Shown here piece by piece: positions 11,134-59,222 of a stretch of 64,000 nucleotides of DNA. The position numbers and the translations under genes are program-made. The stretch spans positions 3,534,001-3,598,000 of the forward strand of contig QYRS01000005.1 of the NCBI GenBank assembly GCA_006503535.1. Reading direction: 5' to 3'. Each line of letters opens with the position of its first letter. The first letter of the stretch is position 1. The DNA comes from Arthrinium phaeospermum. Lineage: Eukaryota; Ascomycota; Sordariomycetes; Amphisphaeriales; Apiosporaceae. The notes under the pieces are model-generated. The model ran no database searches, was not told where the DNA came from, and saw only the letters and a list, made by a program, of their open reading frames with translations.

Positions 11134-11765
11134 TTAAACCTCCGGTCGGGAGGACGGACCGGCAACACACTCCTCCTCCTCTGGAGCGGAGGGGGCAGCT
11201 GGCTCGGCCTCGGCCTCGGCCTCGGTCGACTATGAAACACAAATGTCAGTATGTCCGACGACACCACCGTGATTACAGAAGTCGAAAGATATTCTTACCG
11301 TCACCTTGCGGCGGCGGAGGAGGGACCACCCTTCGGCGGCCGGCATTGCGTGGTGCGGGTACACCCAGTCCGCCAACTCGTCCATGTCGTCGGCCTGCTG
11401 CCGACGCCGCTGGCTTCGAATGAAGCCAAAATACTGGTCGAAACACCAGCGGAAGATGCTGCGGGCGTATCTCTAAACACTGCATTAATCGCCATTCAAA
11501 GGAGGATATATATAAAGAAAAACGCATAAACTTACAATGAGTTTCTTGGCCAAAGAAACGCCGCCCGAGATTGTCAAAATGAGGCCAATAATCTTCCAAA
11601 AATTGGCGTTGGTCTATACAATTGATTAATATGGGTATATTGAGATACAGGCTCACTGTAGCGAGCAGTATAGAGATATACCTGGCATTGCTCAAGTTGA
11701 CCCCGAAGGATCTCGACCTCCTTGCCACAGTTGTGGCCGATGCCGGTTGGTTCGCTATTACTCAT
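11134..11765 (-). CDS. Small single-pass membrane protein, unit A
   Basis: Not a known family to me. Four exons, all joined in phase 0: 11765-11682, 11613-11536, 11472-11299 and 11229-11134 (gt-ag throughout), giving 143 aa. Residues 1-28 hold HNCGKEVEILRGQLEQCQ, a short amphipathic helix. Residues 29-54 are a likely transmembrane span (NFWKIIGLILTISGGVSLAKK). Residues 55-112 are basic and aromatic (FRWCFDQYFGFIRSQRRRQQ, DDMDELADWVYP). The last 31 are acidic and repetitive (STEAEAEAEP) and end in PEV. A paralogue with the same exon plan and the same 78-nt membrane exon is at 58625-59222. Intact frames across four exons argue for a real gene. It sits immediately upstream, in its own orientation, of the hairpin and array. 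Confidence 0.7.
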
Positions 11766-11851
11766 GTCAATACTGATAGACTATAGTAGCAACAGTAGAT
11801 ACTGACGGGGAAAAGGAGGTTTGGACACCGTCCATTGTTGTTGTTGCTGCT

Positions 11852-11902
11852 GTGCTTGTGCTTGTGTTTGTGCTTGTGCTTGTGCTTGTGCTTGTGCTGG
11901 TG
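11852..11902. repeat. Hexanucleotide microsatellite (tgtgct)n
   Basis: About eight near-perfect copies of gcttgt upstream of the small membrane-protein gene, preceded by a gtt trinucleotide run. Confidence 0.9.
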
Positions 11903-12246
11903 GTTGCTGCTGCTGGGCGCAAAGAAAAAGGGGGCGACAAAAAAACAAGCAGGAAATCGGTATGGTGAGGGTTGAAGAGAACAGGATTCCAAAGCCAGAG
12001 AAATTATCATTAATGTCTACGTATTTACTTGCGTTTCAACCCCTGGTCAATTCAACCCTTGGGGGCAGGCTCAACAGACTGGATTTACCGCGCTACCCCC
12101 TACTGGTTATGCCATAGATAAGGACTAGATGGACGCAACCCCTACGGCAGTTTTAAACACGAAGGTATATTAAGTTATTATGTACTAGGAACATAGTAAA
12201 GCGGTTAGAACTAGTTACTCCAACAGTCATGCGCCCAGTCGCATTT

Positions 12247-13134
12247 TCAACCCACGCAGACATAACATCCAAGCCACAAGTTGCTACAGGCAGCGTCTAC
12301 AGCAGGGTTCCAAGCCATAAATTGAGACGACGTGATGCCATTCGCTTGCTCAATAGACCAGCAACCATCGCCAGACTGAACCTGGTAGAATTTCTGACAG
12401 CCACTGGTGGTGTTTGGCATCTGGGGAGATGGCCCCGTCTCCGTCGGCGTGGCAGGGGGGTTTGCTGGTTCTGTGGTAGTAGGCTTATTCGTGGGGGTCG
12501 AGCCCGGGACTCCCACGCAGACCCAGTAGCCGAGCCAGAGATTGGAACAGGCTACCAAGTGAATATAGTGGTCAGTATTACCGCACATCTAAATCCATCA
12601 CTGGGCAGTGAGCGGGGCTTGCGTACATGTGTCAATAAACGGGTTCCACGAAGCAAAGCCGGCAGCATCAATGCCGTACTAAGACTCAATGACAGAGCAA
12701 GAGTCGCTTGAAGCTACGAGGTGGAAGCTGTTGCAGTTGGCGGCAAGACCAGACTGTGTCGGCTCGTGAGGAGAAGACGGCGCCGTGGTGGTGGCCGGGG
12801 CCGCGGTTGTCCTGGTAGGATGGGCGGTGGTGCTTACCGGCGCCCTGGCTGTCGTCGTCGTCGTCGTCGCGGCGGGGCCCGAAGTGGCCGTACCGACCAC
12901 ACAGTAGTTCTGGCCGGCGACCAAGTCCCCTGGGCACGAGACGCGAGGGTTAATGGCGGCAAAGGCATCCGGCGTGAGACCCCAGGCGGCTGCGAACGAG
13001 GAGCAGGAGTCGCCATTGCTGGCACCCGTCTCGATGTCGCACTGGACTGCGACGGCCTGGCGGGCCTGGATCACGCGCGATGCGATCAGCTGCGGGGCAA
13101 GGGCCAGGACGAAGAAGGCAGTGGCGCGGGTCAT
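12247..13134 (-). pseudogene. LysM effector-type protein with in-frame TAG
   Basis: Exons 13134-12627 and 12551-12247 (intron gtacgc ... tggtag). Start at 13134 opens a signal peptide (MTRATAFFVLALAPQLIAS). LysM 1 spans about residues 30-80 (GDSCSSFAAAWGLT ... NPRVSCPGDL), a Thr/Pro linker follows, then LysM 2 (CNSFHLVASSDSCSVIES). A TAG at 12681-12679 falls inside LysM 2; the frame continues correctly beyond it (YGIDAAGFASWNP) through the intron to CSNLWLGYWVCVG and a third LysM (YQVQSGDGCWSIEQANGIT). LysM effectors bind chitin fragments outside the cell and mask them. The domain layout and its position next to a LysM chitinase match the usual fungal pairing. Truncation at residue 151 would leave one whole LysM. 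Confidence 0.8.
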
Positions 13135-13909
13135 CGTAGCGATGGTCTTCAGGGGCAATACACGGGGCAAAGGCTATTGACAGAAGACGGGAACCCGTGT
13201 CAATGCTGGCTGCTGGTCTAAGCAGGACTTCTAAACAGATATGGTGTTAAAGTAATACACTGAATATGTGGTTGCAAACCGTCTTCAACACTTCCTACCG
13301 GATGCCATTCACCATTATTTCCCACGATTACTCTACATCTAATGCCCTTTGTCCTTTCGACTTGCTTCTTCCCAGGTCGACTCGATCTAACAACGCGAAA
13401 ATATTGAACCCAACCAACAGCGATGGCAAGACTCTCACGTTGTGCAATCGGACGTTGTCCCCATCTGGGCAATTGATATTGTCGGCAATATGTTATAACG
13501 GTCGTCTGATGTCCATTATCGAGACCACCCACGTTTTGATATGCTGCATCGTGATTGGTCCGGAACAACTTCCCCTCGGAGCGCGATCCAACCCTTGTCC
13601 CTCGGTGGCTCGTTGCAACCCTACCCAGGCTAAGCATCATATCTCGGTGACCTCTTCCGGCGCAGTGACTGCGGCACAGTCAATGCTGAGGGCCTGGACA
13701 CAGCATCTCCGGATTTAAGCCTTTCGGGCCGTCCACCAAGAGCTCTTACCCCTGAACCCCCGGTCTGGGCAGGGCTGCATCAATGAGACGTGCTACGCCA
13801 CTTCGGTTCTCCAAGTAAGGACCTTTCATATTCCTCTTGACTGTGCCGCACTGGATCAGTCTCTCCTTGCTTCTCGTTCCTTTCCACGCCTATCCTCCAG
13901 TCCTTTACC
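13135..13909. other. Intergenic between LysM gene and DUF7136 gene
   Basis: Shared upstream region of two divergent genes. Short open frames on both strands (up to 150 codons) show no motifs. No gene supported. Confidence 0.5.
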
Positions 13910-14749
13910 ATGGCTGCGCTTTCGCATTTGGTCATGCTGCCCCTCGCGCTCTTGTGCTGGGCGGCGCAGGTTGGAGCCACGACCTTCCCGGCGACGGTGG
14001 AAGTCGACCTAATCTTCCCCCAGAACGAGACCTACGCGCCCACGGAAATATTTCCCTTCGTGTTCGCCTGGCAAAATGCCGCACTGGCGCCGTCGCTTAA
14101 CCCGGGCATCAACATGGTCTTCAACCTGTGGAACGATAGCAAATCGGCAGCAAACCCCGAGATCGTCCTGTCGACGCTCGACCTAAGCAACACCATCTTC
14201 AACGCCAGCGGTCCCACCTTCGTCTACGGGTACAAGCTCAACTTCACCAGCGGCCTCGGGGACGGCCCGTGGCACGTGCGTATGACTTGGGAAACGATGG
14301 CCGGCAACTGCTCCGACCACGGACTATACTTTGGCGGTGGCTACGTCCAACCTGGCGGCGTTGAGTTCACCATACAGAAGGGCGGCCGACAGCCCGACCT
14401 CGTGGCCGCCACCTCAGACAAGGAGCGCTGCAAGAACATACCGCATGCTGCCTTCAACATCACAGGCACGCAGTTTCGCCGACCCCAACCGACCCGGCCC
14501 CACGACAGTTGTGCCGTCTTCTCAGACGTGCAGCCCCGGCCGGAGGGCGATCCTTGTAAAGTCCAAGTCAGCCCCTCGGCGGCAAGCAGCATTGCGGCCG
14601 CGATCAGAAGCAGCGAGTGTGCTGTCCCCCACCCCGTTATCGGCGGCTGCAACCCAAGTAGTGCGGCAGCGGGGTGGAAGCAGGGTGTGGAGGGTTTTGC
14701 GGCTTCTGGTGGTATACTGGCAGCGTTGGTGGCTATATGGAGTCTCTAG
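13910..14749 (+). CDS. DUF7136-type secreted, GPI-anchored protein
   Basis: Intronless, 279 aa. An N-terminal signal peptide (MAALSHLVMLPLALLCWAAQVGA) precedes a domain I recognise as DUF7136 from its opening (TFPATVEVDLIFPQNETYAP), its FVFAWQNAALAPSLNP block, several N-glycosylation sequons and a paired-Cys region ending PHPVIGGCNPS. The C-terminus is a small-residue stretch and a hydrophobic tail (GFAASGGILAALVAIWSL), as in GPI-anchored wall proteins. Biochemical role of the domain is unknown. It lies between the LysM effector and the LysM chitinase; unlike them it is intact. Confidence 0.85.
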   Translation: MAALSHLVMLPLALLCWAAQVGATTFPATVEVDLIFPQNETYAPTEIFPFVFAWQNAALAPSLNPGINMVFNLWNDSKSAANPEIVLSTLDLSNTIFNASGPTFVYGYKLNFTSGLGDGPWHVRMTWETMAGNCSDHGLYFGGGYVQPGGVEFTIQKGGRQPDLVAATSDKERCKNIPHAAFNITGTQFRRPQPTRPHDSCAVFSDVQPRPEGDPCKVQVSPSAASSIAAAIRSSECAVPHPVIGGCNPSSAAAGWKQGVEGFAASGGILAALVAIWSL

Positions 14750-15392
14750 AGCAGCCGAGAGATGCTAACTCCCGGTACTGCGAGCTTCTCTTCAAGCTTT
14801 GGTTTATAGTTACTCATATAATGTTCTCGCGAGTCTGTGGTTTTATTGTGTATTAGCCTTTGTAGCCAAATCTGTCCCATACCCCCATTCTACAGCTAGA
14901 ATCAATTATACAGATGTTATTCCAAAGTCACGAAACATACTTAATCCTGTTTACTGGACGGAAAGAACATGCCATGTCATTCGCTCATGTCGGCTCCTAG
15001 TTTCCAGTTCAAGTACGACGCAACAAATAACAATGACTCGCCAGCTTTGGGATGCGTACCGTTTGCCATTTGTCCTTGGGCGAGAGTGACCCTAGACACG
15101 GGGGCCACTCCAATCCCGACTAGAGGGACCACCTCGGGCGTATTTGTGGTAACAATCTTAAATCGGTAGAGGAACCAACATGTAATTATATCCCGCGGGT
15201 AAACTTCACGGACGAATGTCCGTATTGGATTCATTGCATGATCCTGCGCCGCACTCATCACAGGGTCTGTACTGCATGTGTTAGCGATTTCATGCTCGGT
15301 CTAGAAGTGTTTTCATTGCAGAAATGTCAAAGTGAGAGACGTGCAAATTCCGCGTGAGCGGATTGGACCACAGACTGTCCTGGTCATCGCCG
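14750..15392. other. Intergenic upstream of chitinase
   Basis: No gene seen. Leads into the TATA element of the chitinase. Confidence 0.5.
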
Positions 15393-15400
15393 TATATAAA
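15393..15400 (+). promoter_or_regulatory. TATA box of the chitinase
   Basis: tatataaa about 107 nt before the ATG at 15507, in a non-coding stretch ending in a pyrimidine-rich leader. Confidence 0.55.
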
Positions 15401-15506
15401 GATCACTACCTCGCCCCTGGTTTGTAAACAATAAAAAGGACACCGCCATCGGTTCACTCGAACCCATTCCATTCCCTCTCTTGCCAGTACACTTCTGAAC
15501 ACGGCG

Positions 15507-18500
15507 ATGCTTTCTCTTCAACACGTAGCAACCGCCCTAGGCGCTGCTGCTCTCTTCCTTCCCCTTGGAGCAGTGGAGGCCGCGTCGGGCATCCAGGCCA
15601 ATCTGCGGCAGCCAGCCGCCGTCTATTACCAAGGCCGGAATGACTGCCCTGTCCTCTGCAGCGTATCGGGCCCCGACCCAGCCAACTGGACGGCCTACCA
15701 CAATCTAGATCAGGTGGCATCTTGCAAACAGACAGTCTTTTACTACTTCTCGATCCATGATGCGGTAGATGACAGCAGTATACCGCACCGCATCTACGCC
15801 TGTACTTCCTTCGGCGCAGTCAAGAAGCCGGGCGTGGAGGCGACCCAAGTCACGCCAGCGGTACAAACCCTCGACAATGCATCCTTCAAATTGGGACGCT
15901 GGAACGAGACCGCCCCGCGTGGCATCGACTTGCGGACACTGTCCAAGGATATGCGACGATTTCTGGACGCCGGCTACACGACGGCCGAGAACAGACCGCT
16001 CATGCTGTTCGCCCAAACCGCCAGCAGCACGGCCGGCTTGTAAATGGGCAAGGGCCTGCAGTTCCAATCCACGGCGGCCGACGCTCTGGTCAAGATGGAG
16101 AACGCGCTGTTCACCACCAACAGCACGGGTGGCAGCGTGGCCATGCAGCTCTGTGAGGACGGTTACGACAGTGACCACGTGTTCGGGTTCATGGCCACGA
16201 GCAATACCTCCTTTACTCCGGTGCAGTATGCGTTGCGAGGCTGGGCTAATGCGACTTGTCTGACCTTTGACACGGAGCAGGAAGTCATTGGTAAAGCCGT
16301 CTTCACGGCGCCATTAGTTTTGGCGTCCAACCAAACAGCCAACTCGACCGGGACCAATGCACCCTCCTATGGCAGCCCGTTGGCCTCCCGGCGGGCGGTT
16401 CGGGCTCGCGGTGGCTGGAGACGGACACTGGCCAACCCGACGCCGAAGCGCAACGCTGACGGATCTTGCCAGACGTATACGGTCCAGCTGGAGGATTCCT
16501 GCTGGGCCATTGCAGACGCTCACGGCCTAAAGGTCGAAGACCTCGAGAAGTACAACGAGAAGACGTGGGCCTGGAGCGGCTGCAACCGGCTCTTCGCCAA
16601 GAGCGTCATCTGTCTCACCAGTGGATCGCCGCCTATGCCCGCGCCCCTGGCCAACGCCGTGTGCGGCCCCCAGAAGCCCGGCACGATGGCACCAACCGGC
16701 GGTATGGACGACATCTCCCTTCTGAACCCGTGTCCGCTCAATGCCTGCTGCGACGCCTGGGGCCAGTGCGGCATCACGGCCGACTTCTGCACCGACACCA
16801 ACACCGGCGCTCCCGGCACGGCCAAGCCCGGCACCAACGGTTGCATCTCCAAATGCGGCACCAATGTCGTGATAGGCAGCAAGCCCAGCCAGTTTATTAA
16901 GCTGGGCTACTACGAAGGCTACGGCATGAGCCGGGATTGCTTGTATCAAGACGCCCGGCAGATCGACACGAGCAAGTATACACATCTGCATTTTGCCTTT
17001 GGCGTGCTGAGCGCCGACTACCAGGTCTCAACTGGCAATGCGCTCAGTACGTACGAGTTTGATAGTTTCAAGCGCCTGGGCGGTGTCCACCGCGTGCTTT
17101 CTTTCGGCGGCTGGGCCTTCTCTACGGAACCCAGCACCTACGATATCTTCCGCAACGGGGTGACGGCGGCCAACCGCCTGGCTATGGCCACTAGTATTGC
17201 TAATTTTATTAAGGCTAATGACCTGGATGGCGTGGATATTGATTGGGAATACCCCGGCGTAAGTTGAACCTCATTCCGTGATGACTTCAAAACTTGGGTA
17301 CTGACGGTTGCCAAGGCCCCTGACATTCCTGGCATCCCCTCCGGTGGCGAGAGCGACGGCGCCAACTACCTTGCCTTCCTAGTCGTGCTCAAGAGCCTTC
17401 TTCCCGGAAAGACCGTGTCTATCGCGGCCCCGGCTTCATACTGGTACCTCAAGGCCTTCCCCATTGACAAGATCGCCAAGGTGGTGGACTACATCGTCTA
17501 CATGACGTACGATCTACACGGCCAATGGGATGCCAAGAATAGCTGGTCGCAGGAGGGCTGTCCCACCGGCATGTGTCTGCGTAGCCATGTCAATCTGACC
17601 GAGACCAGGACGGCGCTGGCCATGGTGAGAGCCACCCCCTTTTTTCTTATCAGTGGCCCCTCTCTTTTCCTGCTACATTCACTGACTAGTCCTTCTTGCT
17701 TTAGATAACCAAGGCCGGTGTACCATCCAACAAAGTCGTCGTGGGTGTCAGTAGCTACGGCCGCTCCTTTGCCATGGCCGACCCTGGCTGCCACACGCCT
17801 GACTGCTTCTTCACCGGCACCGCCAGCCTGTCCAATGCGGCCAAGGGCCCTTGTACCGACACGGCCGGCTACATCTCCAACGCCGAGATCTTTGATATCA
17901 TCGACGGCAAAACCGGGCCCTTGGCGACTCGACAGAGCCGGATCAACCAGAACTATATCGACAGCACCAGCCACAGTCGCATTGTCGTCTACGATGACAA
18001 CCAGTGGGTCGCATTCATGGACGACGGCATCCTCGCCCAGCGCGCCGCCGTCTACCGCGGGCTCGGCATGGGGGGCACCACCAACTGGGCCACCGACCTG
18101 GAGACGTACCACGACCCGCCCGACACCAGCGACTCCTGGGCCTCGTTCCGGTCCAGCGTGGCGCTCGGCGACGACCCGTACGCCGAGGGCGCCCGCACGG
18201 GCAACTGGTCGCACATCACGTGCTCCGATCCCTCGGTGCAGGGGCTGAACACCTTCTCCCCCGCCCAGCGCTGGGCCATGATGGACGCGCGCGACGCCTG
18301 GGCCGACGTCCGCCAGGTCTGGACCGAGATCGACCAGCCCAAGGGCTGGAACTTCACCAAGTCCGTCGCCAACACCATCCACGGGCCCGAGCTCGGGGGA
18401 TGCGCCAAAATCGGCCACAGCAACTGCGACCAGACGCTGCAGTGCTCGGGCTTCGTGGGCGGCAAGGCGGGCGCGGCCGGCTACGAGATCTGGAATTCCA

Positions 18501-20195
18501 TGGTCATCATTCACGAGGTATTGCCCCGCCAAAAGACGGAACGCTGACAGCCACACGAAGCTAATCATTCTCCATCCAGATTTATGAGGATTTCCATACG
18601 GCTCTATTCGAGGCCGCCGCGGCGACTCTGGACCCGGCCCTCAGGGACTTCGAGAACTCATTTGCTCCGATTCCACCGCCGTTCGACACCAAATGGCTGG
18701 ATATTCTCTTGGCCGCCGTGAGTCTGGTGGGCACCGTCGCTGTTTCGGGGTACTTCAATTCAGGTACGTACTGTATCTTACTTGTGCCTGTCCTCGTATC
18801 TCCCTGCCAATTTGAACTAATTGGTCCCTGCAGTGCTCAAGGCCTTGCCGTACTTCAAAGCCAACTCGGTGTCCTACGACAACTACAAGGACACGGCCAA
18901 GGCCATGGTAAGCTTCAGCACTTCCATCGCCGGAACACTTACTGGCACAAAAAGCGACGGGTAAGACAGCCTCCCCCCTGCTCCTTGGGCATTTTTTCTT
19001 CAATTCCCTTGTGTCCGCTCCGCCCACTAACGCAGTGGAACCTAATCCTAGCGTCGGTTGGACGGCCGAGAAGCAAGACGCCTTTTCCAATTACATGGGT
19101 CAAGTTGTTACGGCCTGGGCGAATGTCACCGAGTTCTCCCTCAAAAGTCTATTCAGCGGCGAGCCTGATTCCCTCGAACTTCTCACCACCATGATTGCCG
19201 ACGGCAAACTCATCGACGGCACCGTCAACAACGTCCTCCTGTCCCCCGACCTCACGGTAAGCAACTCGGAGCTGCGGGGCAGCATTGCCAAGGTCCTGTT
19301 CGCCTTCGCCATCCCGCAGCTCTGGTCCGTCGCGGGGACGCGCGCCTTCGTCCTCGACTCGGGCTACGACTGCGGCACCATCGACCCGGAGTCCCGATAC
19401 CTCGACGCCGGCACCATGCACGCGACGGCCGGCTGCTACCCCCAGGGCCCCGGCGGCAAGCTGTACTACCTCGTGCACCCCTACGGCAACGCCCAGACCT
19501 GCGGCGGCGGCGACGGCACCGCCGCCGCCTGCCACGACAACCCTTTCTCGGCGCCGCCCGGGCTCGACACCCTCGACGGCTCCCGCTTCGGCGGCGTCCG
19601 GCTCGACGACCTCATCGCGGGGGCCGTGCGCACCTACCTGCAGAACGGGCGGCAGAACGGCGGGCCCGCGACGGACCCGGCCAACGGCGGCTCTTTCGAC
19701 GACCTGCTGGCGCAGGACGTGACCACGCCCGGCTTCATCCGCATCCCCGTCTGCAGCGCCGACGTAGCCTACGCGGCCTGGTCCGACGACGACGTGCACG
19801 ACGACGTGCCGAACTACCCGTGCTACATCAAGCCGTCCATCAGCGACTGCGGCGACACAACGTTCGAGGACCAGACCTCGGACGCGTCGCCGTCCGTCGC
19901 TGACTGCATGGCCATGGTGAACAACATCCGCGGCACGCAGGGCGAGTGGGAGATTGAGAACGCCGTCGGGACGCAGCACGAGATCGCGCACTCGCCCAAC
20001 TACGAGTGCAGGTTTGGCGTGCAGGGCAAGGGCAAGAACGGCAACATCGATTTCCACGTCGGCGCCAAAGATATTGTCGACATTGTCGAGGATGCCATCA
20101 AGCGGTACGGCGGCGGTGGCAAGGTCGGGGCTAAGGGCCGGATGAGCTGTAGGGGGACGGTGAAGGGTCAAGACGTTGAGTGGGGTCTGTACTAG
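15507..20195 (+). pseudogene. Killer-toxin-like LysM/CBM18/GH18/Hce2 chitinase, in-frame TAA
   Basis: Six exons: 15507-17258, 17316-17624, 17705-18517, 18580-18763, 18834-18960, 19052-20195, all with gt-ag introns, about 1,443 codons. Signal peptide (MLSLQHVATALGAAALFLPLGAVEA); LysM near residue 321 (YTVQLEDSCWAI); hevein-like chitin-binding domain near 384-430 (CGPQKPG, LNACCDAWGQCG); GH18 from GYYEGYGMSRDC with DGVDIDWE (catalytic Glu 581) and SYGRSF; C-terminal Hce2 domain (Ecp2-homologue: GNIDFHVGAKDIVDIVEDAIK to the end). This is the subgroup C fungal chitinase plan, compared with the zymocin alpha/beta subunit. TAA at 16041-16043 (codon 179) interrupts an otherwise clean frame; no indel occurs in over 4 kb of coding sequence. 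It truncates the product before every domain. Confidence 0.85.
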
Positions 20196-27437: not shown

Positions 27438-27445
27438 CTTATATA
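27438..27445 (-). promoter_or_regulatory. TATA box of the hydrophobin
   Basis: tatataag on the minus strand, about 146-153 nt before the ATG at 27292. Confidence 0.55.
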
Positions 27446-47049: not shown

Positions 47050-48014
47050 TAGAAATCATTTTAGGCACGTGAATTGGTAAATTTTGAGTGCAGCGGCGCG
47101 AAACTCACGGGAGTCGGTATAGAAGAGGGGGCGGTTTAGAACTAGCTGGGTATGGCAATAGCCTCAGGGTTGGTCTTAGGCAGCGCTTAGGTGCGACAGA
47201 GAACCCTAGACAATAAAGGGTAATATACGGAGTATAAACATGCCATTGCGATGTAATGATAGCACCGCTGGATAAGGCACGCGGACCTGTGAGATGACTG
47301 TGCAACGGACAAGGGTGCAACATCAAGGCGCAACAGCATGCCAAGACCAGTGCGATGTCCTGCGGAGGGTGACCGCCGTACATCGGGCCTGGGTCGAGTG
47401 GTGCCGGCATCAACCCACATGGCCATACTGTTGCGCCAGCGGCGCTCGCAACTCTAAGGTTTGCTAAAGCCTTCTTCTAAAATGGTTGACGTCTCAAATT
47501 ACTTCCCGTCTGGCCAGTGGCGACGGAAGAGGCACCATGCTTGGTGGTACCGGTGGCTTGCAGGCGCCTGATTGCACCTGTGTTACCGTAGTCGCCCGTC
47601 ACATCAGGCGCTGCACCCAATAACCATGCGACAATACCGTCGCTTCGCCCGACGGAAGGAACGGCGCATATAGTTGGAGGCGGGGTCGTGTCGATCGTAT
47701 GCAACAAGGTTGCATAGTGTGAGGCAATCTGGCACCTCGGATGGTTGATTCTCTTTTCCCATGCATCTCGTGCGCTCGGGTTTCAACAGGCGACTGGTCA
47801 CCGGGAGAGCCTGATCGAGCATCTCCCGACACCATCCTTTTAGGCACCAAAGTCAGCACGCACGCACAGCACGGTGAAATTGAGCCACCTGCCGATTCAG
47901 GCAGGTGGTTAGGCCTGAAAGTAGTAAGTAGTTTTCATTTGCTTCATTAAACTATTACACATTCTCTTCTGCCTGATTATCACTCTGAGATATTCTGCTA
48001 ATTCACGTTACGCC
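47050..48014. other. Intergenic, no gene seen
   Basis: No gene, repeat or RNA recognised. Confidence 0.5.
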
Positions 48015-50087
48015 ATGTCTGAATCAAACTACGAATCCCCATCGGAAGCGGACAGCGACGCAAGTCGGAGTAATGTCCCGTGTGCTCACATGCGATTGAA
48101 ACATTTCAAACGCATATCATTTTCTCAATTCGAGTCATTCTCAGATTCGTGTCGATTATGCCGTCTTTATAAGGATATCGCGCTAGCTTTAACACACGAG
48201 TACCTGCCCAGCCTGTTTAAACCAAATTCCATGAACGAAGTAGAGGAAAAGTTATTTCTTCAAGGCCTGGACATATCTTGGTTCAGAGGGACTGCTCCTA
48301 TATGGACGTCCATCTTCCACATATCAGGCCAAGATTATTATTTCAGCATATTCAGAGACGGAGACACCGACGTGGAAAGAAATTTCAAAGTCGAGGGTCG
48401 ACGCTTCTTGGAAGGATGTCGGGTTGGGCGACATACGAACTCCAAGATGACGTTTACGCACGCTAAAAAATGGCTGTTTGAGTGCCTAACCCGCCATACC
48501 TGCTCAAGACCGAGCTTCGAAGCGGTTCCTTTACCTGGAAGGCTGCTTCAAATCCGGGGTTCTGCCAAAGATCCAATTCGGCTGGTAAAAACCCAAGGGA
48601 GCGAATGTCCATATGTTGCTCTAAGCCATCGATGGGGCAATCCTAGGCTTAAACAACTCAAAACCACAACGAGGACAATCCAAAGCCACATGGATCAAAT
48701 CCCATGGCACGACCTGCCCGCCACGTTTCAGGATGCTGTGACAGTTTGTCGGTACATGGATGTTGAGTATCTCTGGATTGATAGCCTGTGCATCCTACAG
48801 GCCTTCGAAGACATTAGTCTCGATGAAATTGAACCCACCGAGCACGACTTTGCACAAGAGAACTCCATAATGGCGAGGACGTACCAAAACTCACACTTCA
48901 CTATTTCCGCCGACCTTGCCACTCACATGGACAGCGGCATGTTTTCTCACCTTCCACTTGACGATCACGCGATTGAAGTAATGGCCGATGATGGCAAACC
49001 CGCAATCTTGTATATCAGACAAGATGTGAACCACCGAAAAGAAGAGACTCCAGAAATCGAAACACGCGGCTGGACCCTGCAGGAATTCCTTCTTCCACCA
49101 CGAGTTCTACACTTTGGGGAGTGGGACATTGAGTGGAGGTGCAAAAAACGGCTGACTTGCGAGTGCGGACAATTGGACAGAGAGCGATCAAGGGAAGGGT
49201 GGCATCGACATCATCGTATGGAAAGGGCAAATGAAACTCCTCCTGCGGACGACGAAGGTGCTCTGAGGTGGTGGGAGGACGTCGTCCATGCTTATACAAG
49301 TCGCCAATTGACCAAGCCGAGTGATAAGCTGCCTGCACTCTCAGGCCTAGCTCAACTGCGCAAAGGAGTCAAAGGTGGCATTTATTTAGCAGGGCTTTGG
49401 AAGGATTCGATCCTTCACGACCTCTGCTGGTATCATACCCTCGACTTTCAGGTCGCAACATCAGGGGGCGTAGGTCGAAGACCACCGAGCTACCGCGCAC
49501 CATCATGGTCCTGGGCCTCAGTCGATTCAGACTCGGGATGTAGCTGGTGGTGGACTGGGACGAGGGGACTACACCCCATCTTCCCTATGGCAGAACCGAA
49601 ACCAGCCTGCACCATCCTTGAATCAGCATGCGAGGCCAAGACCAGTGATTCAACGGGTGAAGTTCGAAGTGGATTTCTTGATATCGAGGTGGCATTGATC
49701 CCAGCTGAAATCTGTCCAGACACCGAGCAAAAGGTTGCCTGGACTGTCCATAACATTGGTATTTCCTTGGATCTCAATTTTTTCAAGCCTGATTGCGAAC
49801 TTGAAGAGGATGGCCTATCATTGGGAGGCAGGGTTTATTGCGCACCAATTGCCGAAACAGCATTTTCAACTAGATTGCGATATGGCTGTTTGGTCTTGAA
49901 GAAGCTGAGTACAGATGTTTACCTGCGAGTTGGATTCTGTATCTTGGGAAAGGGGGAGTCGGATGCATCATTTTCACAAGTGATCTTTCACCATGGACGA
50001 AGGTTCGGAAGACCCCCCCCCCCAATATTTAATCTGGAAGACCATGCATTGCCAGATAGTGTAAAGGTGCGAGTAAGAATTTTTTGA
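48015..50087 (+). CDS. HET-domain protein, intact
   Basis: Single exon, 690 aa, from MSESNYESPSEADSD. The HET core lies around residues 190-350: YVALSHRWGNPRLKQL, LPATFQDAVTVCRYM, YLWIDSLCILQ, then the post-HET RGWTLQEFLLPPRVLHFGEWDIEWRC. Next comes the usual downstream module, YTSRQLTKPSDKLPALSGLA, YRAPSWSWASVD, and a beta-rich end. An N-terminal Cys-containing stretch (SDSCRLCRLYKD) is also common in this group. Such proteins act in allorecognition, with cell death on mismatch. A long C run near 50018-50027 sits close to the 3' end and would be a fragile point. It differs in architecture from the HET gene at 685-2773. Confidence 0.9.
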   Translation: MSESNYESPSEADSDASRSNVPCAHMRLKHFKRISFSQFESFSDSCRLCRLYKDIALALTHEYLPSLFKPNSMNEVEEKLFLQGLDISWFRGTAPIWTSIFHISGQDYYFSIFRDGDTDVERNFKVEGRRFLEGCRVGRHTNSKMTFTHAKKWLFECLTRHTCSRPSFEAVPLPGRLLQIRGSAKDPIRLVKTQGSECPYVALSHRWGNPRLKQLKTTTRTIQSHMDQIPWHDLPATFQDAVTVCRYMDVEYLWIDSLCILQAFEDISLDEIEPTEHDFAQENSIMARTYQNSHFTISADLATHMDSGMFSHLPLDDHAIEVMADDGKPAILYIRQDVNHRKEETPEIETRGWTLQEFLLPPRVLHFGEWDIEWRCKKRLTCECGQLDRERSREGWHRHHRMERANETPPADDEGALRWWEDVVHAYTSRQLTKPSDKLPALSGLAQLRKGVKGGIYLAGLWKDSILHDLCWYHTLDFQVATSGGVGRRPPSYRAPSWSWASVDSDSGCSWWWTGTRGLHPIFPMAEPKPACTILESACEAKTSDSTGEVRSGFLDIEVALIPAEICPDTEQKVAWTVHNIGISLDLNFFKPDCELEEDGLSLGGRVYCAPIAETAFSTRLRYGCLVLKKLSTDVYLRVGFCILGKGESDASFSQVIFHHGRRFGRPPPPIFNLEDHALPDSVKVRVRIF

Positions 50088-51338: not shown

Positions 51339-53885
51339 ACACCGATGTGGTTGGGCCGATGGATATTGAGTGCAGAGACGAGAAAGAATACGGGAGACTG
51401 TACTTAGGCGATCATTGAAGTAGTGTATGGTTAGTAAATTTGGCTTTCAGGCGGAGCAAAGAGAAACAGCCAAAGAGGGCAAGTGCAATTGATAATGGTG
51501 TTAGTAGCAGGCCAACTGTGACACGCGAAACGGCGAGCGATCAGGCGTAGCTGGCGGGTAGTGGTGTGCGCTGGGCACGGGTCCATCATCGACTTGGTCC
51601 AGCTTGACTGACTATGATCCCCACCATACATGTATCGCCCAACGAAAAAGAGCGACCACGCATGCATGGGAGTCTCGCAGCCTGCAGGCCGAAGGGGGAT
51701 ATGAAAATCTAGAATCCAAAAGCAAAGCACCTGGTTGGTTGTGCGATGTGACATCTATCTCATCACATCCTATTGGCGGATAAAACGGTCGTGGGTGCGG
51801 GTCTTCTCGATTGGGACAAGCAAGAGTGCGTCGACGCGCCAGAGGATGCGACTCTGGTGTAGCCCGCTGCATCACTGCGAATGCTTTTCGAGGGTAACCT
51901 ACTCTCTGTGAGGGTCTTGTTTCTGTCAGGGAGGCTTGATATGAGTCGAAAAGGTAACAAGAGCTTGGACGAGCCTCGACATGCTAGAATGCTTGTATAG
52001 AAGATGAACGCAGACTCGAGTAGCTCCGCGGAAGCCACCTGCGTTGAACTATTTGGAGACTCCTCGAACATTTCGAGTGTATTGACACTTCCTTCTCAGA
52101 CCTTTTGCTTCTTCCGGGAAGACTTATTACGAAACGAAAAAAAGAAAAAGAACAGAAAAAAAGAGGCTGCTTGCATGGAGCGCATGAGATTTGATATCAA
52201 TGTCCATGCGGCGTCAAAGGACAAGGACCAAGTGATTCCATTGGCCAAGGCCAATTTGTAACGCCGATAGTGACGATGACAGCGAGGATGGCTTGCGCGA
52301 CGAGGTTCTCGGCGCGGTGTGGCTTCCGCAGTCGTCCCAGCTGTCCCAGTCAACTGGACTGTCCCTCAACTGGTGATATCTCGGTTCGGTCGGCCATTAC
52401 AATCGGGGCTCCTCTTGGCTGTATCGTAATATGGTTGGTATTTGTTCGTCGTGAGTCTCCTCGCGAGAGTCTCCTCGATGTCGTCCTATTGCTCCCGTGC
52501 TTCCCGATGGGGTCATGGGCTCGGTGCACTTCGTCCCACAGGTCTTGACCTATGAGTAGTGAGGATGCGGGACGATACTGGGCGTGATCTTACATGGTGT
52601 TCAGTCGGTGTAGGTACACGCCCGATAGCGGAGAGTAGAGAATGAGATGTTTGAAAAAAAAAAACATGTAGTTGTATTATGCTCCTGAAGACTTCAAACT
52701 TGATGGAGCTCTGGGTTGCACGTGCAGGACCGCACAGTGGGGCTATTCGGCACTATAAACATTAGCGCATCCATTAGGCAGGGTCGGGCCCTCTATTTGC
52801 TGCTCTCTATCTCGCCTGTTGGTTGCCTACATCATGAATAGCCTCACATTGGGCAAGAGGCTAGGAAGAAACAACAAGCTACCTAACCCCCTTGAGCGCG
52901 GAATGCAGCTGGAATACTCTGTCTCGCAGCCAGCTATGTCGTCATGGCCTCTTGGTACCCAAGCTAGTGCACGCTACCCCGTCGGATCCTTATTAAAGAT
53001 TAGAATTAGCCGCGCCGAGCCGTGTAATTGTCAGAGATTGTCCCACAAAACTGGCCCCTGAGCAGAAGAGTAGTGCCCTGGGGTCTATCCAACTGGGCGC
53101 ACGGATATTCCCCTAAGAAGAAGAAGATTGTACCATTTTCTTATCTCACCAAGAAGGGCGCTCCATGCTGAGCATCACTGGAGCCTCGCGGCGATTGCCG
53201 TATAGGCGAAACACGTTTTGGGGACTAGGAGATGACCGCCGGTGGGGAAGGCCCGGTTCTGACAGCTCACGGTTCACGATCGACATTGCCGGTCGGCGGT
53301 CCCACTTGGCCAGGGGAAATTACTGTACAATGCCACTGGTCAGGGAGCCCCACCGCGACCCATTGCCGAACATGGGGGCCGTGAGGTGACATGGATGCGA
53401 CAGGCAGGATAGGCCAGCAGATAGACTGCGTCACCCTAGCGCGGGGAAATGCAGGGCCCAGTGAAAAGTGCTTGTCCAGAGAACCCTTAATCACGCGTCT
53501 GGAAGATCCGTATCTCAAGACTGACCAAAGAGACGGGGCGAGCGATGCCGTCGTGCCCGCCCAACAGCGCACCCAGCAGGGTATCATCTCGCCTGCCATT
53601 TCACCCTGACTAGGTCGGGTAGGGATTAGGGAAAGAAAGAAGAGCGAAGCCAGAATGTATAAAACTTGGTGGCCTTCCGGACGACAAGCGGTTTGAATTT
53701 TTGTTCTATTCCCATCCCTTCTTGAAGATATCAACCCACACTCCTTTACTTTCTGTCACTCTTTAACCCACAACCAGCTTCGGCTTGTCACTCTTTTCAA
53801 CACCTTTACGACCTATACCACCTTTTACGACCACGCCCTCCAACCAAACCCACTTTTATATTTCTTCGATATCTTCATTCTCAAG
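51339..53885. other. 2.5-kb stretch without supported genes
   Basis: Short frames without motifs. The last 250 bases are the upstream region of the following gene, with tataaaac at about 53658 and a C/T-rich leader. Confidence 0.5.
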
Positions 53886-54827
53886 ATGCGCTTCTCCGGA
53901 TTCTCCACGGCCGCCCTGGCTGCTTTCTCTTTCGGTACCGCCTCGGCCAACCCCATTGCCGTGCCCGAGCAGGCCGCCAAGCGCGGCCTCGTTGGCGGTC
54001 TTCTCGGCGGCGGCTCCTCTGGCTCCGACAGCGGCAACGCCTCCGACGGCGGCAACAACGGCGGCGCTTCCGGCCTCGGCCTGAACCTGCTGCCCGAAAT
54101 CACCGGCAAGGTTGAGGGCATCCTCGGCCACGTGGTCGGTGGTCTGCTCGGTGGTGTTACCGGCGGAATGTACGTGCTAATCTCTTTTTCCTCCCCCACA
54201 TCCTCAACCCACCTACCAACATGAGACTGAGACTGACTCCACAACCCGCACAGTGACCTGAACAAGATCCTCAACAGCGGCGAGGCCCTCACCGTCCTCA
54301 CCCGCGTCGAGGGCATCGTCGGCAGCGTCGCCTCCGAGGGCCTGCAGGCCGTCGACTGGGCCACCGAGATCACCGACGGCCTCCTGGGCGTCAAGGTCAC
54401 CTTCGGCGGCGACAACGACGTCCTGTCGGGCGTCGTCGACACCGCCGTCGACATCGTCGGCCAGGTCGAGCCCCTCGTCAAGGACGTCCTCGGCGGCACC
54501 GCCTCCGTCACCAACCTGGTCAAGGGCCTCGCCCCCGTCCTCGGCAACGTCGGCCAGATCGTCTCCAAGCTGACCGGCAGCGTCGTGGCCGGCACCACCG
54601 AGGAGATCGACAGCGTCCTGAAGCAGGTCCTCGGCACCGTCCAGGGTCTCCTTTCCGGCGTCCTCAACGGCACCGGCGACCTCCTCAAGGGCGTCACCGG
54701 CCTCCTCGGCCAGGGCTCGCAGCTCCTCTCCCTCACCGGCCTCGTCACCAAGGGCTTCGCCCAGAAGGCCGCCATGACCCAGCTGGCCGGCCCCGTGAGC
54801 CAGGCTCTCAAGGTCCTCCAGAGCTAA
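53886..54827 (+). CDS. Secreted hydrophobic-repeat protein
   Basis: Exons 53886-54169 and 54254-54827 (intron gtacgt ... cgcacag) give 285 aa. Signal peptide MRFSGFSTAALAAFSFGTASA is followed by a short propeptide-like segment ending in a KR (Kex2) site, a Gly/Ser/Asn-rich stretch, and a long run of Val/Leu/Gly-rich amphipathic segments (VEGILGHVVGGLLGG, VDIVGQVEPLVKDVLGG, VLKQVLGTVQGLLSGVLNG, LLKGVTGLLGQGSQLL). No Cys. Nearly every codon ends in C or G, the most biased gene in the window, which usually marks strong expression. I do not recognise a named family; a cell-surface or extracellular role is likely. The bias leaves the antisense strand open for over 300 codons. Confidence 0.82.
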
Positions 54828-55199
54828 ATTCGGTAATTACCCACCACACACACACAATTACCAAACGAACGACAAGATCAACATTGTTTTATATGGAGCG
54901 AGCGGGGATCGATCAGTCTCAGCGGGCTTGGTTTTATGAAGCATCACGGGGTGATTCATGGATCTATGATCTATATTTAGGGACGGGCTAGTCGCGAAAG
55001 ACTACAAAAGTTCTTTTTATCTTTAAATGTATATACTTTATCAAGCATGTCAATGACATTTTATGACTTTGGAAACCACTGAAGAAAGACCTGTGTGTGA
55101 CATATCCCTTGCTCTTCCGCTAATTGCTTGATGGCTCCTATCACGTTCGGAGCCTGCAGGATTCGGTTCGCGAGGTAGGAAGAATGAAGAATTGGTTGG
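54828..55199. other. 3' flank, no gene seen
   Basis: AT-rich 3' region between two converging loci. Confidence 0.5.
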
Positions 55200-56880
55200 G
55201 ATGATGTAACTCATACCCTGTGTTCCAGCAGTCGGCGCCGTCGCCGTCCTTGTGACCCGTCCCGCCGGAGGAGTCGATGTTCGTGTGAAGACCAAAGCCC
55301 ACCTTGTTCTTGGGCACCCCCGTCTCGTCCAGCAGCGCTGCGTAGAAACCTGTCGGCCTTGCTCTCGTCCAGCGACCAGTACACGCTCTGATGGTATGGG
55401 TTCTTCGGTCCGTATCCGCGCTGCGAGTAGTCGGGCGGGCAAGGCTCTTTGACCTTCACCATGGACGTTTTCAGATGGCAGTTATTGCCTGGTACGTAGT
55501 CGCCGCGGCGCTGGATGATGGAGTAATAGGTGGAATTTGAGAAGAAATCGCCATCCATGTCGTCGCTTTCTCGATCCACCTCATCGCCCTGTACTTGTTC
55601 TTCCATAGTGCTACCTTTCAGCAGCGCCTCGTCGCGGCGGCGTTTGGTACAACATTCTCCCTCGAAGCAGTACTTGCAGTCATGGCAATAGCTGCAGCAC
55701 AAAGAGATCTCCACGACCTCGCATGTGAAGAAGTCGTTGCCATGCTTCATCATAAAGTCGTGGAATTGACTGTTGGCGCTGCCGGCCACTGCCATGGCGT
55801 ATACTTTGAATTTTTCATCGTAGTCCAGGTCCATCATGTCGTTATACTGCGACAGGGAATCCTTGAGCAGCCCGGCAAGCAACTGCAGTATATACTGGGG
55901 GGCACACTCTGCTGGCCAGCTAGCGATGGTGACGTCGGATAAGTCATCGAAATGGCCGGTGGGAGCATCATCACAAGTCACCAAAGGGATATTTGATGTC
56001 GCGTCGTCGGGACAGTCATCAACTTCGTCCACATCCGGATCGCAGGACCCTCTGCCAGATCCACGGCCCAGTCAATGGTCCCGGCGAAATTCAGACGTTG
56101 CCATCGCGACTTGCGGGCTGCCTTGACGTCTTCGGTCATGTAGGCAACCCATTGCGTGCCTCCCCAAACGGCATAGTTGGTATCGGTCTTGGAGTCGTAC
56201 CAGGACGCGACGTCTGTGGAGGCGTTGGTGTAGATGATGTCGTTGATTTCCGCGTTGGAAATGTAGCCGGGCGTGGCTGTACACTCGCCCGGCTCGGCCT
56301 GAGAACTGCCGTCACCGTTCGGAGTGAAAGTGCACATCGGTCCAGTACACCCGGCGTGGGTCATCTTGAAAGATCTTCCGTAACTCGAGACGCCGACTGC
56401 AATCAGCCTGGTCGGCACGCCGGCCTTCGTGATCATTGCTAGCGTGAGCATGGTCTCGGTCAAGTTTACGTGACTACGGAGACTGCTGCCTGCCTCACAG
56501 CCATCGTTCCTGGGTTGCCTGCAGGACCTGTGTGGTTTGTGAAGTTGTCGGGCGTAGCACCGCATCTACCCAACATGTTGCAGCAGGCATTCAGCGAGCA
56601 CAGGTTCAAGCCGGCAATGGCAGTACCGTTGAAGGGCATTTGGGTCCCGGGAACGGTCGGGCCACATTGTGCATTGGCAACCGGGTTTGGCAAAGGGGGT
56701 TTCCCTGTGCATAAACAGATGGTCAACAACGCGGGAAGATTGTTGCAGTCGCCAAACGTGTTGTTGAAAAAGTCGATCTCTGGTTGGACAGGCCATACTC
56801 TGCACCTATGGTCGCGCAGCCTTGCCTTCCTGCACGATGTACTGTCGTTAGCAGGCTGTATTGCTCTGTAGGACTGAACA
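55200..56880 (-). pseudogene. Second LysM/CBM18/GH18 chitinase, active-site region deleted
   Basis: Reading downward: LysM end (YIVQEGKA, GAEYGLSN, NNTFGDCNNL) behind an acceptor-like ctgctaacgacag; then CGPTVPGTQMPFNG and LNACCNMLGRCGATPDNF of the chitin-binding domain; then directly RSHVNLTETMLTLAMITKAG and VGVSSYGRSFKM of late GH18. The middle of GH18, including the DxxDxDxE catalytic motif, is absent, so some 200 codons are missing near 56465. Downstream is the subgroup C tail (CTKRRRDE, GDYVPGNNCHLKTS, SVYWSLDESKADRF), with a one-base shift near 55355 before VPKNKVGFGLHTN. At least two more indels occur in the LysM. It parallels the chitinase at 15507-20195 but is a distinct paralogue. 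Confidence 0.82.
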
Positions 56881-56926
56881 TGACTCACGGAATAGCATGA
56901 ACCGTTCTTGTGGCTAAGGAGGCTAA

Positions 56927-57410
56927 GGGTGTGTTTCCTTTTTATGAGCTGGCTGATTTTGGCTGAACTTTTATGGGATAATCGCATAAGGCCTCGGAAG
57001 CCGCATACTTCAAAAGTGTGTTTCCGTCTTCCAGCTGCTTATTCTCCAGCCGATGTACACTTCAACCGGCTGATCGACGCTGATCGAGGATCCTTCAGCC
57101 GGCCAATCACATCGACGGCTTCGGCTGAACTAAGAAGCCGGGCGATAAGCGCTGATTCTCGAGAAGCCAGCTTATTCGAGGTAAGTTGTATGAGTGTGGT
57201 ATTGCTCGCGCTCGTCCCTCGAGTCCGGATGAACGTTGTCTCTATTTCAACACCAGTACGGAAGGGGCCGTGGTGACGTCGATGAGCCGACGAGGGCTTC
57301 AGCCGATGAGCTGGTCCGATAAGCTGGTCCGAAAACGCTGGCTGAACGTTGGCTGAAATGCATTGATTTCGTACCCCAAATCAGCTGGCTGATGAAAAGG
57401 AAACACAGCC
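56927..57410. mobile_element. 484-bp TIR element with TAA target duplication (PIF/Harbinger-like MITE)
   Basis: Imperfect terminal inverted repeats of about 34 bp: left ggg tgtgtttcctttttatgag, right end gatgaaaaggaaacacagcc, both flanked by TAA (56924-56926 and 57411-57413). GG-starting ends and a TAA duplication fit PIF/Harbinger-type elements. No transposase frame, so non-autonomous. The interior repeats cggctgaac- and agctggt-like words. Confidence 0.75.
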
Positions 57411-57412
57411 TA

Positions 57413-58190
57413 AGGCAGGCTGACCGAGTCGGCTCGTACCGCTGTTTGCCGTCTCTTGTTGACAGGGAGGACCAAGGGAGACAGGCCTAAGTTGGCTTGT
57501 AACGCTGCTTGCCGTGCCTGGTCGACGAGGAGGGTCAAGACAGCCGCCTAAGTTGGCTGCTAACGCTGTTTGCCGGGTCTGGTCGACAGGTAGGGCTAGG
57601 CAAGCTGTTGTCTCTTGTCGACGGGGAGGGCCAAGGCAGACCGCCTAAGTTGGCTCGTAACGCTGCTTGACGTCCTTGGTCGATGAGGAGGGCCGCGGCA
57701 GACCGCCTAAGTTGGCTTGTAACGCTGCTCGCCATCTTTTGCTGACGGGGAAGACCAAGGCAGACCGACTAAGCTGACCGTAACGCTGCTTGTCGTGTCT
57801 GGTCGGTGGGGAGGGCCAAGGGAAGCAGGCTGTTGTCTCTGGTGGATGGGGAAGGTTCGGAAGGCCGCCTAAGTTGGCTCGTAACGCTGCTCGCCGTCTC
57901 TTGCTGACGGGGAGGGCCAAGGCAGACCGCCTAAGTTGGCTTGTAACGCTGCTCGCCGTCTCTTGCTGACGGAGAAGACCAAGGCAGACCGCCTAAGTTG
58001 ACTGTAACGCTGTTTTGCCGTCTTTCGAAGATGGAGAGGGCCTAGGCAGGCTGTTGTCTCTGGTGGATGGGGAGGGTTCAGAACACCGCCTAAGTTGGCT
58101 GCGAACGCTGCTTTGCCGTCTTTCGAAGATGGGGAGGGTCCGGCAGGCCGCCTAAGTTGGCTGCGACGCTGTTTCGCCGCCTCTTGATGA
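57413..58190. repeat. Degenerate tandem array, unit B
   Basis: About ten units of roughly 60-75 bp with core gcctaagttggctcgtaacgctg, each followed by cttgccgtctcttg-like and gacggggagggccaaggcag-like blocks. It is related to the array at 9660-10150 but has its own consensus (gttggct in place of atcggct), which also matches the adjacent hairpin's 3' arm. Confidence 0.88.
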
Positions 58191-58397
58191 GCCCTGGCGA
58201 GTCTGGAAGCTGATGTTCTGAGTTGGTCGGAGGTTGTTGCCGATTGAAGGCGAACGTCCCTCCCCCGCTGTGGGGGGAACTCTTGGGGCAGCCATAGCGT
58301 GACTTGCGGTGGGGTTTTAGCGCCTAGGTGTGCTGAGCCAGTACCTAGGGTGACCGGTGAGGCAAGTAGGTGTGCTGTGCTCAGCCAATGCAGTGCC

Positions 58398-58513
58398 AAC
58401 AACCACCAAAAAAAGAGCTGACAGCCGAACAGGAAGATTGGAAAGCTCTCGGTTTTCGAGAGCCCAATAAGTTGGCTGTAACGCTGCTTTTTTTTGGTGA
58501 TTGTTTTTTAATT
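58398..58513. repeat. Long conserved hairpin, unit B copy
   Basis: Outer arms caccaaaaaaa and tttttttttggtg, middle acagcc (58421-58426) and ggctgt (58474-58479), then gattgg (58436-58441) and ccaat (58464-58468), inner gctctcg (58445-58451) and cgagagc (58457-58463). Loops and flanks differ from the copy at 10911 while pairing is kept. Confidence 0.85.
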
Positions 58514-58624
58514 TTCAAATTTTTTTGGTGTTTTTGTTGTTGTTGTTGTGTGGTTCCAAAAAAAAAGGCGGCATCTTCGATCATTCATTGTTGATAATGA
58601 TGTTGACTTGCGGCGGCCGGGATT

Positions 58625-59222
58625 TCAAACCTCCGAAGAGGCAACAGCCTCGGAGGCTTGGGGCTACATCGTATCAATCAGTATCAATGTCAATAGAAGC
58701 GATTCAGGAACGGGTAGTCTTACGGTGGGGGCGGGGCGAGGTCGTACGACCGCGAGGTCGTAGACCTCGTCGCCGGCCTGGCGGTGGCGTTGGCCGGCCA
58801 CCCACCGGCGAACCCAACGGTAGCCACGGATGGCTCGTTTCTACACATTATATGATACACCCGTCAGCTCTGCTCCATGCGATATTGAGAACAACGAGTA
58901 TGATTCGCTTACAATGGTTCCCTTGATGAGTCCCGCCACGGTGATGACGGTGAGCACGTAGCCGATGATCTTCCAGGCTCCTAGGTTGGACTATATGTCG
59001 GCAGTTAGCTATGGTAAGCAATAGAGAATAGGTTAGTTATAAAGCGTAATATAGTATTCGCATACCTCGAGGCGGCGGACCTCCTCCTCGAGGAGGAGGA
59101 CCCGCTCCTCGCAAGCGAGGCGGGTGGGGGCAGCAGGGCTATATCGTGGTCGTTAGTACTCAACGAACTGGCACACTGTCGGCATTCAATACTGACAGGA
59201 CATTGTCTACCGTGGTAGACAT
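58625..59222 (-). CDS. Small single-pass membrane protein, unit B
   Basis: Paralogue of the gene at 11134-11765. Five exons: 59222-59197, 59138-59066, 58990-58913, 58840-58724 and 58663-58625, total 333 nt or 110 aa. Intron 1 has a gtcagt donor and a perfect ctaac branch site. Residues about 10-33 are charged and helical (CEERVLLLEEEVRRLE), aligning with the Cys-led helix of the other copy. Residues 34-59 are the membrane span (WKIIGYVLTVITVAGLIKG), again coded by a 78-nt exon in phase 0. Then comes a basic stretch (RWVRRWVAGQRHRQ) and a short tail ending SSEV. Both copies are intact, while much around them is not. Family unknown to me. The hairpin and array lie just downstream of its stop. 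Confidence 0.68.

What the first reader, a model, noticed from the sequence alone, without database searches (positions are those of the whole stretch)
11134..59222. Two paralogous tiny membrane-protein genes, 46 kb apart, each tied to an array and hairpin
Genes at 11134-11765 (143 aa) and 58625-59222 (110 aa) share the order helix, WKIIG-containing membrane span in a 78-nt phase-0 exon, basic stretch, tail ending in EV. Both are intact across four to five exons despite abundant pseudogenes nearby. Each is followed by the same hairpin and tandem array. A gene family that travels with its own repeat could be a selfish or recognition module; I know no named family for it.
Basis: partly seen in the sequence, partly recalled or inferred. 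Interest (0 to 1): 0.78.

Follow-up and report, generated by a model that had tools for sequence, protein, structure and literature searches.

The report
Fungal mini membrane-protein genes with hairpins
Two small, spliced membrane-protein genes in this fungal genome belong to an unnamed, locally duplicated family, and each is followed by a conserved RNA-type hairpin and a tandem array that repeats one arm of that hairpin; what the genes do is not known.

Summary
The observation largely holds. Both genes are on the minus strand and share a five-exon plan (exon 2 = 73 nt, membrane exon = 78 nt, intron phases 2-0-0-0). Gene 1 probably starts at 11835 (149 aa, not 143). In three loci a strongly folding hairpin lies 110-121 nt after the stop (z -6.7, -7.6, -5.8). 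Beyond it is an array whose units share only a core of about 18-20 nt, and that core copies the local hairpin's 5' arm (22 of 26 candidate units closest to their own hairpin).

Whole-genome searches place every detected relative in the distal 0.5 Mb of one contig: three gene+hairpin+array loci, two truncated copies with damaged hairpins, a four-unit cluster without hairpin, and a membrane exon sitting in frame in an unrelated gene. Apiospora marii has a close relative of the cluster. The membrane exon shows pN below pS.

So the family is real and extends beyond the window, but hairpin and array are not obligatory companions. Best reading: local segmental duplication of a gene with a structured 3' UTR, the array having grown from the hairpin's arm. 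A selfish or recognition role is neither shown nor excluded; pairing between hairpin 3' arm and array is not consistently locus-specific.

The parts
11134..11835 (-). Gene 1, five exons: 11835-11807, 11754-11682, 11613-11536 (membrane exon), 11472-11299, 11229-11134; 149 aa
   Evidence: Spliced; intron phases 2,0,0,0; hydropathy; start at 11835 inferred from the shared GTCAGTAT intron and equal exon 2 length
10912..11012 (-). Hairpin 1, 121 nt after the gene 1 stop
   Evidence: Fold -49.7 kcal/mol, z -6.67; distance; family
10234..10390 (-). Decayed pieces of a dispersed repeat between hairpin 1 and array 1
   Evidence: 75% identity to C7:2223485-2223569 and a second 61-nt match to L047
9656..10143 (-). 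Array 1: 7 units by eye, starts 63-113 nt apart, core AGCGTTACAGCCGATTTA as in the hairpin 1 5' arm
   Evidence: unstructured as RNA, z +1.69
58625..59222 (-). Gene 2, five exons: 59222-59197, 59138-59066, 58990-58913 (membrane exon), 58840-58724, 58663-58625; 110 aa
   Evidence: Spliced; pN<pS in the membrane exon against four relatives
58398..58505 (-). Hairpin 2, 119 nt after the gene 2 stop
   Evidence: Fold -49.4 kcal/mol, z -7.61; distance; family
57427..58190 (-). Array 2: 11 candidate cores, mostly about 62 nt apart, core AGCGTTACRAGCCAACTTAGGCGG
   Evidence: unstructured as RNA, z +0.92
56922..57414 (.). Dispersed repeat with inverted ends (MITE-like) abutting array 2
   Evidence: Relatives on C7, C10, C8, C5, C2 and C9; inverted arms 56923-56962/57375-57414, 83%

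Best explanation
These are two full-length members of a lineage-restricted (Apiospora-type) family of small, probably single-pass membrane proteins: an N-terminal helix with a conserved cysteine runs into a membrane helix, followed by a basic juxtamembrane stretch that by the positive-inside rule faces the cytosol. The gene, its 3' hairpin and the sequence beyond are copied together by local segmental duplication in the distal end of one contig. The hairpin most likely works in cis, in the mRNA's 3' UTR (stability, translation or processing). The array is a minisatellite that grew at each locus from the 5'-arm core of that locus's hairpin. Shown: gene architecture, family, pN below pS in the membrane exon, hairpin folding propensity, array-hairpin sequence relation. 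Inferred: expression, topology, the hairpin being inside the mRNA, its cis role, the direction of array origin.
For: All detected members lie on C5 between 3.237 and 3.666 Mb, including 12 of 12 matches of the A. marii protein at E<=10 (worst E 0.13). pN<pS in 10 of 10 pairs of the membrane exon. The hairpin is 79% identical over 126 nt between loci 1 and 2 while their membrane exons differ at 40 of 78 sites; stop-to-hairpin distance 121, 119 and 110 nt. Hairpin z -6.67, -7.61 and -5.81 in loci 1-3, but -0.30 and -2.58 beside the two truncated copies. 22 of 26 candidate array cores closest to their own hairpin. A. marii relative, profile E 2.5e-23, modelled with one continuous helix 16-52 across helix and membrane exons (single sequence, mean pLDDT 58).
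Against: No transcripts seen. Covariation is thin: the RNAalifold covariation term is unfavourable (+0.81); three pairs change on both sides in four sequences, reached by 88 of 500 shuffles, and two of those three rest on the decayed copy at C5:3509.9 kb, leaving one. Hydropathy is marginal. Hairpin conservation could reflect gene conversion. Selection was measured on one 78-nt exon without a significance test; the weakest pair, genes 1 and 2 themselves, is pN 0.49 against pS 0.57; locus 3 and unit D were left out because their frames are broken or their exon is of another length. The truncated copy at C5:3663.3 kb still folds better than 199 of 200 shuffles, so hairpin integrity does not track gene integrity cleanly.
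Confidence: 0.55

Rival explanations
1. A selfish killer (spore killer-like) or allorecognition family: fast-evolving small membrane proteins, toxic or signal-giving, with the hairpin and array as control or target sequences.
For: Small, domainless membrane proteins restricted to one genus are what is reported for Spk-1 of Neurospora sitophila (134 aa, two predicted membrane spans, no domain, no similar sequences outside Neurospora; PMC8092558, passages). A review says that spore killer systems involve transmembrane proteins among others and that drive suppression often involves small RNAs (PMC12941216, passages). Two HET-domain frames lie in the window.
Against: No cross and no presence/absence data. 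Hydropathy supports one marginal span, not two. HET genes are common in such fungi (recalled). The same anatomy fits an ordinary orphan family.
Confidence: 0.15
2. The hairpin is a small-RNA precursor and the array its target: the 3' arm pairs with array units (self-silencing, or a killer-target pair).
For: The 5' arm core is repeated in the array in the same sense in 3 of 3 loci, so the 3' arm can pair with array transcripts; mean duplex energies -13.4 to -20.0 against background means -9.7 to -11.2 kcal/mol; the hairpin 1 arm pairs best with its own array (which left out one of the 8 candidate cores of array 1).
Against: Pairing is not consistently locus-specific: the hairpin 2 arm pairs better with array 1 (-18.1) than with its own (-15.0), and the hairpin 3 arm better with array 2 (-20.0) than with its own (-17.4). 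No small-RNA data.
Confidence: 0.1
3. The hairpin is a foldback or MITE-type transposon near the genes, and the array a by-product.
For: The hairpins of loci 1 and 2 have about 14-nt complementary ends; a dispersed repeat with inverted ends abuts array 2 and decayed pieces of it lie beside array 1.
Against: Whole-genome pattern and DNA searches find the hairpin at five places, all beside family gene sequence on C5; a model search of the 223.8 kb held finds the same five. The abutting repeat is a different sequence.
Confidence: 0.05
4. Neutral debris: decaying segmental duplicates with no function in protein or hairpin.
For: Several copies are truncated or frame-broken; arrays and captured fragments look like unselected churn.
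Against: pN<pS in 10 of 10 membrane-exon pairs, intact five-exon frames in two copies, a related cluster in A. marii whose best-matching stretches are 77-88% identical (other stretches, with gaps and stops, 31-55%).
Confidence: 0.15

Closest known systems
Spk-1 (Sk-1 spore killer, Neurospora sitophila), PMC8092558, passages read
   Same: Small protein (134 aa) without recognised domain, predicted membrane spans, relatives only within its genus
   Different: Two predicted spans and a demonstrated killing phenotype; the passages read mention no hairpin or tandem array; here one span, five exons, no phenotype known
rfk-1 (Sk-2 killer, Neurospora intermedia), known here only from passages in PMC6185902 and PMC8092558; the primary paper is not held
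   Same: Very small killer gene (39-aa model in PMC6185902) in a rearranged region
   Different: No sequence relation was tested; a tandem repeat beside it is recalled only and was not in what I read
Hairpin RNAs silencing sex-chromosome conflict genes in Drosophila simulans, PMC10292708 (search listing with title and start of abstract only)
   Same: Hairpin RNA tied to a fast-evolving conflict gene family (details recalled)
   Different: There the hairpins target the gene family (recalled); here the arm matches the neighbouring array, and no small-RNA evidence exists

Membership tests
Fungal spore killer (meiotic drive gene) | Biased transmission or spore death in heterozygous crosses | not testable with these tools
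   No crosses or strain data
Fungal spore killer (meiotic drive gene) | Sequence relation to a described killer family | tested here: inconclusive
   No Pfam family at E<=1 for gene 1 or gene 2, which tests only families that Pfam holds; no killer protein was compared directly
MITE or foldback transposon (hairpin as element) | Dispersed copies with inverted ends at unrelated sites | tested here: not met
   Hairpin at five places, all beside family sequence on C5 (for the stretches held)
Known structured RNA family (Rfam) | Match above gathering score | tested here: not met
   0 matches in the whole window against 4227 families
milRNA/hairpin RNA precursor | Precise small reads from one arm | not testable with these tools
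   No RNA data; long imperfect hairpin present
The family described here (helix + 78-nt membrane exon + basic exon) | Shared exon plan and W-K-x-x-G membrane exon | tested here: met
   Genes 1 and 2, cluster units A-C, A. marii P0001; W39, K40 and G43 invariant in 5 of 5 aligned; P0001 reads WQVVG there, so K is not invariant with it

The most novel reading that the evidence does not exclude
Each locus is a self-contained killer-and-target or self-silencing cassette: a fast-evolving membrane protein gene, a hairpin RNA in its transcript, and an adjacent array made of one hairpin arm that serves as the recognised sequence, so that divergence of the core between loci (three different cores, three matching arrays) sets specificity. 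The membrane exon itself can be spread as spliced sequence into other genes.
Probability: 0.07. Interest if true: 0.85.

Novelty: new variant of a known kind. Interest (0 to 1): 0.45.

Why it matters
Small orphan membrane genes of fungi are a place where spore killers have been found (PMC8092558, passages), and such spliced mini-genes are easily missed by annotation. This family comes with a hairpin that changes less between loci 1 and 2 than the membrane exon does, and with arrays that record one arm of that hairpin locus by locus; that combination gives a concrete handle for finding relatives and testing function. The in-frame replacement of about 40 residues of an unrelated gene by the family's intronless membrane exon would be a traceable case of exon transfer.

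Tried and rejected
Rfam and tRNA scans: nothing. Protein search with a 102-aa version of gene 2: none at E<=1 among 8 candidates; the five-sequence profile then found one A. marii protein. PDB by sequence: five rows, all E>=0.3. PDB by fold: nothing at E<=0.001, from a low-confidence model. Arrays as tandem hairpins: rejected, they fold no better than shuffles. Array as co-adapted target of the 3' arm: not supported for two of three hairpins. Literature searches showed, in the rows listed, no paper on this family or on hairpin-plus-array cassettes in Apiospora; that is the listings only. One search used a structure string that I had set out of register; its counts are void, and one search replaces it.
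Full report
Where it is. The window is C5:3534001-3598000 of a 48.4 Mb genome in 19 contigs; C5 is 3,737,750 bases long.

The genes. On the minus strand, gene 1 (11835-11134) and gene 2 (59222-58625) splice into 149 and 110 aa through four GT..AG introns each. Exon 2 is 73 nt and exon 3 is 78 nt in both, and the intron phases are 2,0,0,0 in both. Hydropathy gives one marginal span per protein, followed by 7 or 8 Lys/Arg in 25 residues. A cysteine stands in the N-terminal helix of the copies I could read (HNCGKE, LACEER, LNCEEK, LACEET). No Pfam family at E<=1 for either gene. The A. marii relative scored PF18159 at E 0.013, below its cut-off, which I do not count.

The family. In the same genome, DNA and protein searches found: locus 3 at C5:3237 kb (gene-like exons, hairpin, array; its ATG frame is not continuous with the membrane exon as read); a truncated gene 1 copy at C5:3509.5-3509.9 kb; a truncated gene 2 copy at C5:3663.0-3663.5 kb; a cluster of four units at C5:3652.2-3654.8 kb, the fourth assigned by eye; and a membrane exon at C5:3665505-3665591. 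A further decayed membrane exon downstream of locus 3 was seen by eye only. All are on C5, as are 12 of 12 matches of the A. marii protein and 5 of 5 of gene 1. These searches score only best candidates, so the count is a lower bound. In A. marii a relative of the cluster is annotated as one 242-aa protein, PG991_001578, profile E 2.5e-23, the only hit at E<=1 among 7423 candidates; its best-matching stretches are 77-88% identical, others with gaps and stops 31-55%. Synteny was not checked. That collection holds predicted proteins only, and mini-genes of five exons are easily left unannotated, so absence elsewhere says little. The census is thus two full-length genes with complete hairpins, one locus with a frame problem and a bulged hairpin, two truncated copies with damaged hairpins, and the rest without hairpin.

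Constraint. In the 78-nt exon, the proportion of nonsynonymous differences is below that of synonymous differences in 10 of 10 pairs among gene 1, gene 2 and units A, B, C, from 0.10 against 0.45 (gene 2 and C) to 0.49 against 0.57 (genes 1 and 2). No significance test was made, several pairs are near saturation, and locus 3 and unit D were left out. This suggests purifying selection in the lineage, not in each copy. In the alignment, W39, K40, G43 and K56 are among eight invariant positions in five sequences.

The hairpin. It lies 121, 119 and 110 nt after the stop in loci 1, 2 and 3 and folds far better than shuffles: z -6.67 and -7.61, -5.81. Beside truncated genes it is damaged: z -0.30 at 3509.9 kb and -2.58 at 3663.3 kb, the latter lacking the 5' outer arm yet still beating 199 of 200 shuffles. 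A covariance model finds only these five hairpins in the 223.8 kb held, besides three antisense matches at the same places, and none in the four-unit cluster; four of the five built the model and match by construction. Between loci 1 and 2 it is 79% identical over 126 nt while the membrane exons share 38 of 78 bases. Covariation is weak: RNAalifold's covariation term is +0.81, unfavourable; three pairs change on both sides, a count reached by 88 of 500 shuffles, and two of the three rest on the decayed copy; percentage paired and covariation score are each reached by 18 of 500. The register is right: 85.5% of cells pair, against at most 49.2% when slid.

The arrays. TRF gives periods of 68 (with a 39-bp stretch) for array 1 and about 62 for array 2. 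What they share is a core that equals the 5' arm of the hairpin. By edit distance (up to 5), 7 of 8 candidate cores in array 1, 9 of 11 in array 2 and 6 of 7 in locus 3 are uniquely closest to their own hairpin; the other four are one tie and three closest to another hairpin; the reverse strands give none. A strict core pattern, up to three mismatches, finds nine places in the whole genome, all in arrays 1 and 2. The arrays are not tandem hairpins (z +1.69 and +0.92). I read them as minisatellites grown from the local 5' arm. The alternative, that the hairpin's 3' arm targets them, predicts best pairing with the own array; this holds for hairpin 1, but for hairpins 2 and 3 another array pairs better (with one of the 8 candidates of array 1 left out as out of phase).

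Churn around the loci. The locus 3 array is interleaved with degenerate pieces of a gene whose fuller copy is at C8:78.9-77.7 kb: 74.8% over 357 nt and 78.0% over 127 nt; from its sequence I recognise a cystathionine gamma-lyase-type enzyme, a recalled label not checked by a call. A dispersed repeat with inverted ends abuts array 2, with relatives on six contigs, and decayed pieces lie between hairpin 1 and array 1.

The exon patch. At C5:3664818-3665903 a 362-aa open frame contains the membrane exon of gene 2, 87 instead of 78 nt through a 9-nt duplication, in frame and without introns. Five orthologues (A. marii PG985_007831, A. saccharicola, A. sp. TS-2023a, two unnamed; the five hits at E<=0.001) all have there about 40 other residues, QQYFPHVGQLRT or similar, in the alignment; so here a segment seems replaced rather than inserted. 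The bases next to the exon match spliced neighbours 7 up and 3 down for gene 2, 8 and 6 for unit C, 7 and 2 for B, 3 and 0 for A, against 2 and 0 for the introns of all four. This suggests a spliced, cDNA-like donor; an intron-poor genomic copy such as locus 3, or an assembly error, is not excluded.

How it most likely works. A small membrane-anchored helical protein with a cytosolic basic stretch, whose mRNA carries a structured 3' UTR; copies multiply and decay by local duplication at a contig end. Shown are sequence architecture, family, pN below pS and fold propensity; expression, topology and the hairpin's role are inferred. A killer or recognition role stays open: it resembles Spk-1 (PMC8092558, passages) in size and orphan status only.

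Verdict. A real, unnamed, lineage-limited family with an unusual RNA-type companion; the claim that it travels with its own repeat as a selfish module is not shown.

Noticed in passing
C5:3665505-3665591 (L024:7755-7841): Membrane exon of gene 2 sits in frame, without introns, in an unrelated gene, where five orthologues have about 40 other residues.
   Followed up: yes
L033 about 5827-6657; C8:78540-78895: Degenerate pieces of an enzyme gene (cystathionine gamma-lyase type, recalled label) interleaved with array cores at locus 3.
   Followed up: partly
window 56922-57414: Dispersed MITE-like repeat with inverted ends abutting array 2; relatives on C7, C10, C8, C5, C2, C9.
   Followed up: partly
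window 60666-60716 and 61321-61371: 51-nt inverted repeat, 88% complementary, enclosing a GCCGGCTCGAAT tandem array.
   Followed up: no
window 2276-2974 and 47928-50084: Two HET-domain open frames.
   Followed up: no
window 16044-20192: LysM and GH18 chitinase-like frames (chitin-binding match below cut-off) followed by an Hce2 domain frame.
   Followed up: no
C5:3653400-3653700: Foreign-looking proline- and serine-rich coding fragment between cluster units B and C.
   Followed up: no
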